IMG/VR virus record: IMGVR_UViG_3300042923_000379
Location: 1 to 53,273 of that record
DNA: 53,273 bases
Reading direction: 5' to 3' (one strand)
From: a virus
Made by a program: the position numbers and the translations under genes
In this document: in pieces, positions 76 through 52,198 of the stretch
Layout of the letters: each line of letters opens with the position of its first letter
Numbering within the stretch: position 1 is the first letter of the stretch
The notes under the pieces: generated by a model
The model's database searches: none
The model's input: only the letters and a program-made list of their open reading frames with translations
What the model was told of the DNA's origin: nothing

Positions 76-774
76 CTACTCAGAATACCTTTCAAACCAC
101 TTATTAATGTACTTTATCCATTCATCTTTTCTATATTGTCTATCAACATCTATGCTTAATCTATCTATACACTCTTCCTTAGTAGCTTCACAATATATTA
201 ACTCTGCTCCCAGCTCCTCAGCTAATCTTTCTCTCTTATACTTATCTTCATATCCACCTATTATCCAAGCGTTGTTCCATTTACCATACCTTGTCTTTAT
301 GTTATCTATTAGAGTATTATGTATCTGCATTACATTACTTAATAGATTGTCTGGCTTATCATAATGAGGTAGATAACTTACTGCTTCATATAATCTATCT
401 ATATCTATTACTATATCTCCACGCTTCGCTTGATCTCTTACTAATGTTTTCTTTCCTGCAAGTGGTGGACCATATACTATATATACTTTCTTCTTAGGTT
501 TATATCCAAATCTATAATGTTCTTTATCGTGGCAATCCCTACATGTAAGCTTTATATTCTTAGGATTAAGAGATATATTCTTATCTTTAACATTCTCCGG
601 AGTTAATTCTATAGGATCATGATGTGCATGTATCTCTATTGACTTAGGCATATCTTTTCCACATATCTCACATCTACATACACCATTAACACTTCTCTCT
701 ACTATTAACCCTATTCTAAATGTTATCCACTCTTTAGATGCATAGAAGTTCTGTAATATAGCATACTTAGCCAT
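76..774 (-). CDS. HNH endonuclease fused to a P-loop kinase-like domain
   Basis: The N-terminal half is an HNH nuclease with zinc ligands C35/C38 and C78/C81 and catalytic HHD at 51-53. From about residue 96 a P-loop NTPase fold begins (GPPLAGKKT, 102-110). The residue after GK, normally S/T, is Lys, with Thr one place later, so nucleotide binding may be altered. Stand-alone HNH proteins beside terminases take part in cos cleavage and packaging in HK97-like phages. The position at the window edge, next to a small terminase, fits that role. The function of the P-loop half is unknown. Confidence 0.85.
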   Translation of the reverse strand: MAKYAILQNFYASKEWITFRIGLIVERSVNGVCRCEICGKDMPKSIEIHAHHDPIELTPENVKDKNISLNPKNIKLTCRDCHDKEHYRFGYKPKKKVYIVYGPPLAGKKTLVRDQAKRGDIVIDIDRLYEAVSYLPHYDKPDNLLSNVMQIHNTLIDNIKTRYGKWNNAWIIGGYEDKYKRERLAEELGAELIYCEATKEECIDRLSIDVDRQYRKDEWIKYINKWFERYSE

Positions 775-3143: not shown

Positions 3144-3297
3144 TTCTCCTATAAATCATATTACTTATTCTTAAATAAATAGCTATTAATATACAGAATA
3201 TAGCATTTAATATAAGCCCCTTAAATTGAAGGTATACTGCAATAATAAAAAATGCTAATGGCAATAATTCATCAAGTTCCTTTGATATCTTCCTCAT
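3136..3297 (-). CDS. small two-helix membrane protein
   Basis: 53 residues beginning MRKISKELDE, then about 28 hydrophobic residues that can form two membrane segments, and a basic tail (YRRNE). A perfect GGAGG site lies 7 nt before the ATG. No family is recognised. Confidence 0.6.
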   Translation of the reverse strand: MRKISKELDELLPLAFFIIAVYLQFKGLILNAIFCILIAIYLRISNMIYRRNE

Positions 3298-3338
3298 AAT
3301 AAACCTCCTAAATAAAAAAGATGTGATAATATCACATC

Positions 3339-3557
3339 TTAATCTCCTGTAAAGCTCCCAAGTATTACTGATTCTTCATTCAAATCTATCTTTTTTATTT
3401 CAACCTTATCTCTTTTAAATACACTATCGGCTCCTCCTGCATCCTTAGCTAAATTAAAAGCACTTTCTTCATCTTTTGCAACAACAACAAAATCTGCCCA
3501 TTCTCCATCTCCATAACGTACATCATCTGTTCTTGATACCAAATAAACATTCAGCAA
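3339..3557 (-). CDS. hypothetical protein, paralogue of the gene at 3598-3831
   Basis: About 72 residues. A TTG at 3557, spaced 8 nt from AAGGTGG, gives MLNVYLVSRTD, matching the start of the neighbour (MLNVYLVERTD), so I prefer it over the upstream GTG at 3569. The pair shares VVAxDEExAF, AKxAGG, FKRxxVxIxKIDLN and SxIL. This is a tandem duplication of a small beta-alpha protein of unknown function. Confidence 0.65.
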   Translation of the reverse strand: MLNVYLVSRTDDVRYGDGEWADFVVVAKDEESAFNLAKDAGGADSVFKRDKVEIKKIDLNEESVILGSFTGD

Positions 3558-3597: not shown

Positions 3598-3831
3598 TTA
3601 TAAATCTCTTTCTAATATTATAGATTTTTTATTTAAATCTATTTTTTCTATTCTAACTTGATTTCTTTTAAACATATACTCTTCAGCTCTATTGCCGAAT
3701 TTATCATAAGTCCCTCCAGCCTCTTTAGCTAATTCAAAAGCTTCTTCTTCATCTTCTGCAACTACTGCAAAGCTATCAGGTTCTGTATGATTTACATTGT
3801 CAGTTCTTTCTACTAAATATACATTTAACAT
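3598..3831 (-). CDS. hypothetical protein, paralogue of the gene at 3339-3557
   Basis: 77 residues. It differs from its paralogue mainly by a short insertion (about residues 44-54) before the FKRNQVRIEKIDLN segment. The acidic DEEEAFELAKEAGG stretch looks like a helix in a small alpha/beta domain. Confidence 0.65.
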   Translation of the reverse strand: MLNVYLVERTDNVNHTEPDSFAVVAEDEEEAFELAKEAGGTYDKFGNRAEEYMFKRNQVRIEKIDLNKKSIILERDL

Positions 3832-39907: not shown

Positions 39908-40594
39908 TCACCTCCAATTAGGTGTTAATTCAATTTTAGAAACAGTACCAGTAAAACTTATTTCATTTAATCCTTTATCTAAATAAGGATAATTATTAAG
40001 TTTATAGTTTTGATTTTGATTCGTGTCTCTAAAGGCCTTCTCTAAATCTGAATTAATATTAATATAATTTGCTACTGAAGTTATTATTGTAGTTCTTCCA
40101 TTTATAGTTAGATTTATAGTTCCTTCACCAGTTATTTTTATAAAAGGTTTTGAAATAAAATATCCTGGATTATATAAATTTATAGCTGAAGATATTTCAA
40201 TAATCTCTTTACCACTATCGAAATAGTTGTATGGATCAATTGTAAAATCTACTGTAAATTTTCCATGGTATCTTAAAGTTCTTTCTAAATTTCCTATATC
40301 AACTTTTTTAATTTTATAGAAAATATCAAAATCATCACTAAACTTTAATTCTTTACCTTCTAGCCATGATTGAATATTTCTAGCTTTTTCGTTCATATTG
40401 TTAAAGTCAATAGTTTGGAAATTAATAGAGACAGTTCTATCTTTCCTACGCTTTCTATCGTAAGTAAGCGAACCATCTCTAGCTTCAACTTCTTTTAATT
40501 CAACATCTTTTTGAGAGAAAGGAATTATAACCCTAGAGGGTATTGTAAGTCCAAATTCTCTACAGCTTATTCCATCTATTAAGTTATAATACAT
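39908..40594 (-). CDS. distal tail protein (Dit-like)
   Basis: 228 residues, siphovirus tail component family: CREFGLTIPSRVIIPFSQKDVELKEVEARDGSL near the start and IDPYNYFDSG in the middle. It makes the ring joining tail tube and baseplate. Directly downstream of the tape measure gene. Confidence 0.88.
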   Translation of the reverse strand: MYYNLIDGISCREFGLTIPSRVIIPFSQKDVELKEVEARDGSLTYDRKRRKDRTVSINFQTIDFNNMNEKARNIQSWLEGKELKFSDDFDIFYKIKKVDIGNLERTLRYHGKFTVDFTIDPYNYFDSGKEIIEISSAINLYNPGYFISKPFIKITGEGTINLTINGRTTIITSVANYININSDLEKAFRDTNQNQNYKLNNYPYLDKGLNEISFTGTVSKIELTPNWR

Positions 40595-43500
40595 TATTTC
40601 ACCCCTCTTGATGTATTATCAGATATTCTTTTTCTTTCTAGTTCTGCGGCTGTCATATCTACTGTAGCTCTAGCTATTTCTCTTCCGTTAATAGGGATTG
40701 ATATTTCAAATCTATATATAGCCCCTTGGTTAGTTGAGTTTGAAGTGTATGAATCAGTGTTATAACTTCCATATCCTCCAGTGGTTGCTAGGCTTGGTGT
40801 TGATATAGTTGGGTTTATTGAACTAGCTATAGCTCCTAATCCGTTTATAGCTTTTGACACCATATTCTTTTTGTCTGATATACCTATTGCATAACCTTCG
40901 GTTGTATATTCTCCCATTTCCATCATTACACGTGAAGGAGAACGGATTCCCATAGCATCTTTAAATCCACCGACGAATTTATCAGCAATTGTTTTAGCTA
41001 TATTCCCTATACTAGACAAAGAATTTTTTACGCCGTTAACTAATCCTCTTATAATATCAGAACCCATATCATATAATCTGCTTGGAATATTAGCAATTTC
41101 ATTTACAATAGATGAAACTATGTTCCTTCCAGCTTCTAAAGCTCTATTTCTTGCTTCAATAGCAAAAGAACTAAGGTTACTTAAAGCGTTACTAAAATAT
41201 TCGTATAGTCTAATAGGTATATTAGAAACATACCCAGTAACAGCACTTACCATATTAGAACCAGCTTCGGAAGCCTTATTCCTTGAATTTTCTGCCCATG
41301 TAATTAAATTATTTAAGGTATTACTTAAAAACGTCATTACATTACCAGGTAATTCACTGAAAAAAGTAATAACATTAGCTATTCCAGTTTGTACAGTTAT
41401 TATCATATTCCCTATTCCATAACCAACGTTATAGGGAATTTGAACAAAAAATAAATCATAGAGATATTGCCCTATGACTACTGGTAAATTAGCTACAAAT
41501 GCTATGAAATTATTAAATTGTGTAGGGATAGTTTGTGTAAAAAATATAGAAATGGATTCTCCAATGTTAGAAAAAAATGTTCCTATACTTTCCATTCCAT
41601 CTTGAAAGCCTTCTTTGATATTTGTCCATAATTCTGAAAAAAATGTACCTATTGTTTGTACTAAATTTGATGCCCCTTCTTTTATTTTATCCCAATTTGC
41701 TACTAAAGCTACTCCAATAGCTATCAATGCCGCGATTCCTGCTACAACTCCAGCTACTGCCCCAGCTATTGGTAACCCTACCGCCATTACTGCGCCTACC
41801 ATTGATATTAAACTTCCTAGTAGTACCAATACTGGACCTACCACTGCTGCAATTCCTGCAATAACTAAAATAGTTTTTTTAGCTGCTGGAGATAAATCAC
41901 TAAACCATTTTGCCACTTTACTTAAAGTTTCAGCAAAAGACATTAATATAGGAACTAGAATCTCACCTAATTGCAAACCTATATCGACAAATTGATTTTT
42001 TAATATTTTAAGCCTTGATTCTGTAGTTTGATATCTTTGATTAGCTTCATTCTGCAATGCTGTATTTTCTTGCCATGCTTTATTGCCTATTTCTATTGAC
42101 TGATTAAATAAGTCCCCAGCTCCTGCTGCTCTTAGTATAGAATCTCTAAGCCTTATTTCAGTTATTCCCATATCATCTAATACTTTAATTGCGCTTGTGC
42201 CTCTTTGTTCTGCTGTTCCTACACCGTTTATAAATGCAATTATCGCTGAAGCTGCATCTTCTTTAAAAGCTTGTTTAAATTGACTTGCGCTCATTCCGGC
42301 AACATTTGCAAACTCTGTTAATTTATCAGAACCTGTTTCGGTAGCAAGTTCTATTTCCACCATGAGCTTGGAAAAAGCACTTCCACCCGCCTCGGCCTCA
42401 ATACCAACAGAACTTAAAGCACCTGCAAAAGAAACTATTTGAGCATTTGTTAATCCTACTTGTTTTCCAGCTCCTGCAAGTCTTAAAGCCATGTCAGTAA
42501 TTTCAGATTCGGTTGTAGCCAGATTATTCAAATTGTTATTATCGCTAGGCTTTTTATCCTAACCTCTGGAGGTTTCCCTCATTTGCATCGAATAGTCTTT
42601 TCTATTCCAGTTTGGCATATATTTTCACCTTCAATTTAATTGTTAAGGTGTCGAGTACTCTTGGGAATATTATATTCTGCTTTTATATAAACAGGTTCAA
42701 TTCCTATGCTCTACGGTGAATACATATATTATTATGCATTTTACCTCGGTATTGACTTAGTTATTTCAATGCTTAATTTCAATAAAATAACGTTAATTAT
42801 CTACCGATTTTACTCGATTTTACGCTACTTGTTTCCAAGTAGTAGGGCAATAATGTTCACCCAAGGCTACAATTGTACTTCCTAATCTGTCAAACTCAGT
42901 TTGAGGTATTTGAGTAATATTAGCTAATCTTGCTAATGCTGTTGCGGCTTGGTCAGCACTTAAATTAGTAGAATCTCCTAACATAACCATTGTCTTTGTA
43001 AAACCTAAAATGTTTTCTGTCTTTATACCTAATTGTCCTGCTGCTTCTGCAACTCCTGCAATCTCACTTGCAGCCGGAGGCATTTCTTTAGCCATATCTC
43101 TAATACCTTGATTTAATTGTGAAAATTGTTCTTCTGTTGCATCTACTGTTTTTCTAACTCCTGCAAAAGCACTTTCAAAATCAATAGAACTTTTAACTGC
43201 TGCGGCACCTAATCCAACTATTGGTGCGGTAACTGCTACACTTAATGTTTTACCAACGCTTTGTAACTTACCGCCAAACTCTTGTAACTTAGGACCTAAT
43301 ACTTTTAAAGATTCATCTATTTTATAAAATTTACTACTCTGCTTATCCAGTGCATCATTAGTATCTTTAAGTTGTGATTCCATCTTGTTATACTCTGCAA
43401 CTGCTTTATTTAACTGTATAGCAAGTCCCTGAGTAGCTTTATCGTCTTCACCTTTAACTTTTACACTTTGGTCATAAGAACTCTTTAAATTGTCTATTTT

Positions 43501-43710
43501 AGCCTTTTGAACTTCTAATTGACGATTTAAAATATCACTTTTATTCTTTAAACTATCTGTTGAATTTCCGAAACTATCTGTACTAGACTTAGCTACATCC
43601 ATTTCAGACTTAAGAACTCTCATATTTCTATTTAAGCTTGTTATCCCATTCTGAAAGTTAACAGAATCCATCCCAAGCTTAACAACTAATTCACTTAAGG
43701 TTGTTGCCAT
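40594..43710 (-). CDS. tape measure protein, split by a group I intron (exons 43710-42859 and 42528-40594)
   Basis: Exon 1 encodes 284 residues ending TIVALG; exon 2 encodes 644 residues beginning NNLATTES. Joined they read ALG-NNLATTE, the continuous motif usual in this family, and give 928 residues. Without splicing, translation adds 12 intron-encoded residues and stops at TAA 42820. Exon 1 has coiled coils (about 45-125) and the start of the TMP core. Exon 2 has the rest of the core, hydrophobic segments (about 215-275) and a repetitive helical tail. It sets tail length and passes through during ejection. Confidence 0.93.
42529..42858 (-). ncRNA. group I intron (IA-like), ORF-less, in the tape measure gene
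   Basis: 330 nt from G42858 to the terminal G42529. P1: exon GGGU pairs with GCCC (intron nt 11-14) with U-G at the splice site. P10: exon 2 AAUAAU pairs with AUUAUU (nt 5-10). P2: CUACUUG-GAAA-CAAGUAG (17-34). P3: UCGAGUA/UACUCGA (42-48/202-208). P4: UCGGUA/UACCGA (52-57/108-113). P5: GUUAUUU/AAAUAAC (68-74/93-99). P6: GGU/ACC. P7: G-a-GCAUA/UAUGCC (148-154/240-245) with bulged A and the G-C guanosine site. P7.1: GGAAU/AUUCC. P8: CACCUU/AAGGUG. P9: GAAUAG/CUAUUC (252-257/264-269). No homing endonuclease frame. Confidence 0.94.
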
Positions 43711-50460: not shown

Positions 50461-52198
50461 TTAAGCTGTCCTTTTTATTAATTCTAAGAACGTAGGTCTA
50501 TTATCTATATAAATTCTATAAGCTATAATCATTGTTACAGCACCATCTATTTTCTTTTCTTCTTGCCCTTCAATTTTACATGGCATTATATCTTGTCTCT
50601 TATTTAAAACAAAAGCTGTATTTTCTAAACACCATTTATCAATAGGATTATTGTTATAAACTATTAATTTCTTTTTAAGGTCATTTTCAACTAACTTCAT
50701 AGCTTCAGACATAGTCCCAAAATCTTGATTTACTCTTGTACAATCAAAACCGTAGTTCTCCATATCTTTTACCCAATAAATAGCTGACCATTTATCATAA
50801 CCAGTATTGAAAACTCTAATATTATAGTCTTTATAAAGTCTATAATACCAAGCTGTTACTAAGCTAAAGTCATTTTCATTACCTGGAGAAACTGTTATGT
50901 AACCTTTTCTTATCCAGCCTTCATATTTAGCCTTAAGTTCTTTGTTTAAGATTTCTAATTTAGATTGTGGAATGAAATACTGCTGATAGAAATATTTCTT
51001 TTCATCACCTGGTTTCATAAGCATTATTCTTGCGCTTGTTAAGTCTCCAGTTTTCGATAAGTCGGATGCTCCAATAGCGAAACAATTTCTGAAATCTTCA
51101 ATTTTAAAAGTTTCCTCGTTAATTAAATCTTCTGGCATTAACCAAGCTGCTGAATTATTTTGTTTTATATTAAAATCTTTGCTTAGTACGAATACTCTAG
51201 TAGGTTTACTTGTTTTAGCTTCTTCTAACATTTGTCTTAAGAAACTACGCTTCTTTACTATTCCAAGGCTAGGATTGGATTTATACCAACTATCTTCATC
51301 TTGATATATCTCAGCCTCACTATCTTGTGTATAAAGCCATATAAGCCATCTAGGACGTTCTAATTCTCCATTTAATACTTGTCTAGCTTCTTTAAGTCTA
51401 TTATCTAAATAACCATCATTGACGATACCTTCTGTAGTTAATTCAAAATACAAAGGTTCTTCTTGTGTAGATAAAGCTTGTCTAATAGGCATTATAGAAC
51501 TATTGTCTTTAAGTTCATGTACTTCATCAGCTGCACCAACTCCGATATTTCTACCTTCTTTAGCACCTGTTTTAGCTGATATTCTTTTGATAGTACCTTT
51601 GTTTTGCCATGAGAACTTTCCTTTCTTTCGGGATTTTTTAATATCCCCAAAGAACATTCCTTTTATATTTTTACGAGTTACTTTTTCAAGTGAAGGACTA
51701 TCTTCTCTCATAGAATTTATAGCTTGAAACATTAAATCGGCTGATTCACTCATAGTCATTACTTGAACATAATATCTTTAAACCCATCGGCCCACAAAAC
51801 CATTCTGCCAAACATATGGCCGAAATAAGGGGCGTTTTTCCATTTTTTCTACCAACTAAAAATATAATATCTTGGTAAAGTCTAATTTGTCTCCCTATCT
51901 CTTCATCATAAATTTTAAATGAATAAATAGCCTCTATAAAAGCTTTTTGATAATGAAGTAATAAAAAGGGTTTACCGGCAAATGGTGCCTCGCTATGTTT
52001 ACATTTGCTTTCTATAAAGTTAATTCTTTTATGAGCTTCAGAAAATTCAACACTGATTTCTTCATCATCAAAATGATCTAACAATATATCTAATTGCTGC
52101 ATCAACTCTTTACCAATAATTATTTCTTTATCCTTACATTTTTTTATGTAAGATAGTAAAAAAGATTCTGGATATTTTTCTATCAATCTATCAAGCAT
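50461..52198 (-). CDS. terminase large subunit, split by a one-base frame change
   Basis: Frame 1 (52198-51746, 150 residues) has Walker A GRKNGKT at 116-122 and ends SSNDYE-stop (TGA). Frame 2 (to 50461) continues with SADLMFQAINSM, Walker B AADE (78-79 of that frame) and the nuclease start GASDLSKTGD. Reading GAG then skipping one T (51748) joins them into about 578 residues, normal for Terminase_1. ATGACTATG before the junction could allow restart but has no SD. This may be a mutation, assembly error or unusual +1 frameshift. Confidence 0.88.

What the first reader, a model, noticed from the sequence alone, without database searches (positions are those of the whole stretch)
42529..42858. 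ORF-less group I intron splits the tape measure gene
Exon-intron pairings can be drawn base by base. GCCC pairs with the 5' exon GGGU including the splice-site U-G wobble. The adjacent AUUAUU pairs with the first six bases of exon 2 (P10). P3-P8 are all perfect short helices in the right order, and P7 has the bulged A and G-C guanosine site. Splicing restores ALG-NNLATTE and a 928-residue protein. Tape measure genes are uncommon hosts for phage introns, and no homing endonuclease is encoded.
Basis: partly seen in the sequence, partly recalled or inferred. Interest (0 to 1): 0.9.

Follow-up and report, generated by a model that had tools for sequence, protein, structure and literature searches.

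The report
ORF-less group I intron in tape-measure gene
A phage gene that sets tail length is interrupted by a 330-base self-splicing RNA of a family already common in phages, sitting at a spot where other phages carry the same kind of intron with or without its usual DNA-cutting passenger gene, so it is real but an ordinary new example.

Summary
[quoted passage not shown] Removing it gives a 928-residue protein matching over 30 uninterrupted relatives across the junction (LG-NNLATTE). Every drawn helix is present. In 12 related introns P3 has both-sided changes at 6 of 7 pairs and 98.8% of cells pair (0/500 shuffles). A covariance model built without the window sequence finds it at 117 bits. 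Rfam RF00028 finds nothing, but it also misses the relatives, so that negative says little. Introns occupy the same TMP site in Staphylococcus phages 6ec/BE22 and PG-2021_4 (with endonuclease ORF), PT1-1 (305 nt, no ORF) and a metagenomic phage; SEP9 and others are empty. The six-base P10 pairing changes together with synonymous exon codons. It is a group IA intron without its homing-endonuclease ORF and very probably splices, though splicing was not tested. The remark that TMP genes are uncommon hosts is not supported: phage ICP1 has three spliced TMP introns, and streptococcal and clostridial phages show the same arrangement. New member of a known kind.

The parts
42859..43710 (-). TMP exon 1 (284 codons), ends ...VALG / UUGGGU
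   Evidence: Pfam PF10145 PhageMin_Tail
42529..42858 (-). group I intron, 330 nt, no ORF; starts GAAC, ends UUUG (omega G)
40594..42528 (-). TMP exon 2, begins NNLATTE
42859..42862 (-). P1 exon strand GGGU (5' splice site after U42859)
42845..42848 (-). P1 internal guide GCCC
42849..42854 (-). P10 guide strand AUUAUU, pairs with exon 2 42528-42523 AAUAAU
   Evidence: covaries with exon 2 in 6ec and PG-2021_4
42825..42842 (-). P2 hairpin CUACUUG-GAAA-CAAGUAG
42811..42817 (-). P3 5' strand UCGAGUA, pairs with 42657-42651
   Evidence: both-sided changes at 6 of 7 pairs
42802..42806 (-). P4 5' strand CGGUA, pairs with 42751-42747
42760..42791 (-). P5 hairpin; the place where relatives carry the endonuclease ORF
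   Evidence: HNH ORF in 6ec
42715..42745 (-). P6/P6a
42705..42711 (-). P7 5' strand G-A(bulge)-GCAUA, pairs with 42619-42614
42664..42704 (-). P7.1 enclosing P7.1a (subgroup IA feature)
42651..42657 (-). P3 3' strand UACUCGA
42626..42650 (-). P8 hairpin
42614..42619 (-). P7 3' strand UAUGCC
42544..42607 (-). P9 (42607-42590), P9.1 (42580-42569), P9.2 (42563-42544) hairpins

Best explanation
The 330-nt segment is a group I (subgroup IA) self-splicing intron without an endonuclease ORF. After transcription of the tail operon the RNA folds around P3-P7, P1 and P10 align the exon ends, exogenous guanosine bound in P7 attacks after U42859, and the freed exon 1 attacks after G42529, joining GGU to AAU so that a 928-residue tape-measure protein is made. 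Shown here: the fold, the covariation, the exon junction by homology, and intron-bearing and empty alleles at the same site. Inferred: that it splices in the cell; that it came by homing and lost, or never carried, the endonuclease ORF seen in relatives in the P5 loop; and that any present mobility would need an endonuclease supplied in trans.
For: Uninterrupted homologues read LG-NN..ATTE across the junction and 279 phage records cover at least 80% of a 266-aa query spanning it. Fold z = -5.4. In 12 introns 98.8% of pair cells are standard against 82% shuffled, with 20 pairs changed on both sides, 0/500; slid controls give 29-44% paired. Leave-one-out CM 117 bits, E 2.9e-26. Same-site introns in 6ec, BE22, PG-2021_4, PT1-1 and L103 with P10 changing together with the exon: AUUAUU/AAUAAU, AUUGUU/AACAAU, GUUAUU/AAUAAC. 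Related introns lie in the AR9 gyrA CDS, which its record annotates as joined from three pieces.
Against: No RNA data. RF00028 gives no match, though it is blind to the relatives tested too. P1 has only four pairs. One nearly invariant base after P7 is A here instead of G. The same-site intron in PT1-1 has only 5 of 6 P10 pairs.
Confidence: 0.95

Rival explanations
1. A decayed group I intron that no longer splices, leaving a broken TMP gene in a defective prophage.
For: The neighbouring terL is also split into two overlapping frames at about 51746-51759, which could mean decay, or a sequencing error. P1 is short.
Against: All core helices are intact in the window copy; P10 matches its own exon perfectly; both TMP exons are open over 928 codons.
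Confidence: 0.04
2. Not an intron: a translational bypass, or two separate tail proteins made from the two ORFs.
For: A 645-aa ORF with a TTG start exists downstream.
Against: The insertion carries a complete covarying group I core shared with introns in gyrA, terL and other genes, and homologues make one protein through this site.
Confidence: 0.01
3. The intron is still mobile, homed in trans by a free-standing endonuclease (collaborative homing). This adds to the best explanation rather than replacing it.
For: ORF-less introns with trans endonucleases are known (PMC3984707, PMC10448857). One HNH protein is encoded at 76-774.
Against: That HNH gene lies by the terminase small subunit gene and also matches a terminase-small-subunit family, so it is more likely a packaging HNH than a homing enzyme. 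No other HNH (PF01844) and no GIY-YIG match in the record.
Confidence: 0.08

Closest known systems
Staphylococcus phage 6ec / BE22 / PG-2021_4 TMP intron (NC_024355.1, OQ355701.1, MZ417338.1)
   Same: Identical insertion site, same core family, same P1 and covarying P10
   Different: They carry an endonuclease-type ORF in the P5 loop (introns of 1014-1056 nt; annotated HNH in 6ec); the window copy has none
Staphylococcus phage PT1-1 TMP intron (PP212900.1)
   Same: Same site, ORF-less, 305 nt
   Different: Sequence diverged; P10 5 of 6; overlaid by hypothetical CDSs in the public record instead of being annotated as an intron
Streptococcal phage TMP introns (phiJH1301-1, MissB1, Javan355) and C. 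difficile pCd11_2 / pCD1602_4
   Same: Same intron family in TMP genes, some without ORF
   Different: A different site (GNTEAI-EDLG in the streptococcal genes)
Vibrio phage ICP1 TMP introns
   Same: TMP gene split by introns with and without HEG; splicing shown by RT-PCR and RNA-seq (PMC10448857)
   Different: Three introns; sequence relation not tested here
Mycobacteriophage BAKA minor tail gene intron
   Same: Short (265 bp) ORF-less group I intron in a tail gene, splicing confirmed (PMC3706429)
   Different: Different gene and host; not compared by sequence
Bacillus phage AR9 gyrA introns
   Same: 3' portion 79-84% identical over about 90 nt
   Different: Different host gene

Membership tests
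Group I intron | P3-P7 pseudoknotted catalytic core with P4, P6 and P8 in order | tested here: met
Group I intron | P7 with bulged nucleotide and G-C guanosine site | tested here: met
   G42711-C42614, bulged A42710, G42709-C42615; bulge and closing pair change to C and A-U in L058
Group I intron | U.G wobble at the 5' splice site (P1) and terminal omega G | tested here: met
Group I intron | P10 pairing of guide with exon 2 | tested here: met
   6 of 6, covarying with the exon in same-site relatives
Group I intron | Diagnostic, not defining: match to Rfam RF00028 | tested here: inconclusive
   No match, but the model also misses relatives found at up to 163 bits with a family-specific CM
Group I intron | Guanosine-dependent self-splicing | not testable with these tools
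   needs RT-PCR or in vitro transcription
Subgroup IA | Extra P7.1 element between P7 5' strand and P3 3' strand | tested here: met
   P7.1 with covarying pairs at 3 of 5; nested P7.1a. IA1/IA2/IA3 not resolved: no subgroup models available
Mobile intron with homing endonuclease | Intron-encoded endonuclease ORF | tested here: not met
   longest open frame 56 codons

The most novel reading that the evidence does not exclude
A conserved LG-NN site in tape-measure genes is a recurrent homing site shared by staphylococcal and other phages, where introns with endonuclease, introns without it and empty alleles coexist and the intron guide keeps pace with synonymous exon codons, i.e. a natural series for the homing life cycle in a structural gene.
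Probability: 0.5. Interest if true: 0.4.

Novelty: new member of a known kind. Interest (0 to 1): 0.27.

Why it matters
It corrects the gene model: one 928-aa TMP instead of two fragments. It shows that a family of phage group IA introns is invisible to the standard Rfam model although easy to find with a family-specific one, and it gives one insertion site at which ORF-bearing, ORF-less and empty states can be compared.

Tried and rejected
RF00028 and the whole of Rfam on the window and on relatives: negative, traced to limited reach of the model. Exact-pattern searches for the window's own P2, splice-site and P9.2 sequences in IMG/VR gave nothing, so no near-identical copy is held there. A relaxed same-site pattern gave one true intron (L103) and chance hits L104 and L105, judged by the absence of an intron core. 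Whole-window megablast (30000-53273) to phages: no close relative. A second intron of this family in the window: none. E. coli genomes: none. Relatives of a virus record cannot be drawn by the genome search.

Full report
Observation. On the minus strand, ORF 43710-42820 ends in EHYCPTTWKQVA* and ORF 42531-40594 begins LNNLATTE. Removing 42858-42529 (330 nt) joins GGU to AAU and gives 928 residues. More than 30 homologous TMP genes from viral contigs read straight through as LGNN(L/F/M)ATTE or close variants. In the phage collection 279 of 303 records cover at least 80% of a 266-aa query spanning the junction. A 45-kb C. difficile plasmid record, 67% identical over the start of exon 2, is also uninterrupted.

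Structure. Relatives found by blastn lie in gyrA, terL, helicase and TMP genes of phages and plasmids. Aligning 12 introns (the window and 11 relatives) with any ORF in the P5 loop cut out, P3 pairs in every sequence with both-sided changes at 6 of 7 pairs. P7 covaries at 2 of 6 pairs and P7.1 at 3 of 5. Overall 98.8% of cells pair, against 82% in shuffles and 29-44% when partners are slid. Caveat: these sequences were picked by similarity to the window intron, so they are related; the strength lies in the both-sided changes, not in the shuffle count alone. A covariance model of P6-P8 built from the other 11 only finds 42753-42612 at 117 bits, and nothing else in the window at E below 1.

Why Rfam is silent. 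RF00028 gives nothing in the window. It also gives nothing for the related introns in L001, L051-L055, L057, L059, L060 and L100-L102, while it does report a different intron in L050 at 104 bits. My model scores relatives at 30-163 bits. So the negative reflects the reach of that model.

Same site elsewhere. tblastn showed phage 6ec TMP homology starting exactly at the junction (H170). In 6ec a 1014-nt intron with an HNH ORF follows UUGGGU and ends before AACAAU. BE22 is the same. PG-2021_4 has a 1056-nt version, PT1-1 a 305-nt ORF-less version and contig L103 an ORF-bearing version. SEP9 and many other Sextaecvirus records have the empty site. P10 is AUUAUU/AAUAAU here, AUUGUU/AACAAU in 6ec and GUUAUU/AAUAAC in PG-2021_4: the guide follows synonymous Asn codons. 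UUGGGU, which gives full P1, precedes the intron in 4 of 4 distinct occupied alleles but in 1 of 29 empty ones (Fisher P about 1e-4). The alleles are related, so this P is only indicative, and it could mean coconversion or selection.

Host gene and precedent. The claim that TMP genes are uncommon hosts is not supported. PMC10448857 reports TMP as a frequently interrupted gene, and ICP1's TMP with three introns spliced by RT-PCR and RNA-seq. Streptococcal and C. difficile phages carry this same intron family in TMP genes. An ORF-less spliced intron in a tail gene is published for BAKA (PMC3706429). The review PMC3984707 describes ORF-less introns homed in trans.

Mechanism. Most likely ordinary group I splicing with external guanosine. 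Shown: fold, covariation, junction, occupied and empty alleles. Inferred: splicing in vivo, loss of the ORF, present immobility. Subgroup IA is supported by P7.1/P7.1a; finer placement was not tested, and the subgroup definition used is from general knowledge of group I intron classes.

Verdict. Correctly seen, ordinary in kind: a new member of a known family at a known kind of site, with some extra value as part of a same-site series.

Noticed in passing
window 51746-52198 and 50461-51759, minus strand: terL is split in two overlapping ORFs in different frames (SSNDYE* then MTMSESADLMF), which looks like a one-base frameshift or sequencing error rather than an intron.
   Followed up: partly
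window 76-774, minus strand: HNH-domain protein next to the terminase small subunit gene (980-1822) at the far end of the record; probably a packaging-module HNH.
   Followed up: partly
L050 (C. difficile pCd11_2) 2433-2568, 3199-3450, 3655-3790: Up to three group I intron cores in one TMP region: two by my model, one by RF00028.
   Followed up: no
L100 (PT1-1) 864-1168: ORF-less TMP intron overlaid by hypothetical CDSs in the public annotation.
   Followed up: partly
Streptococcal TMP loci L001, L052, L053, L069, L072, L077: One insertion site occupied by introns with and without an endonuclease ORF in the P5 loop.
   Followed up: partly
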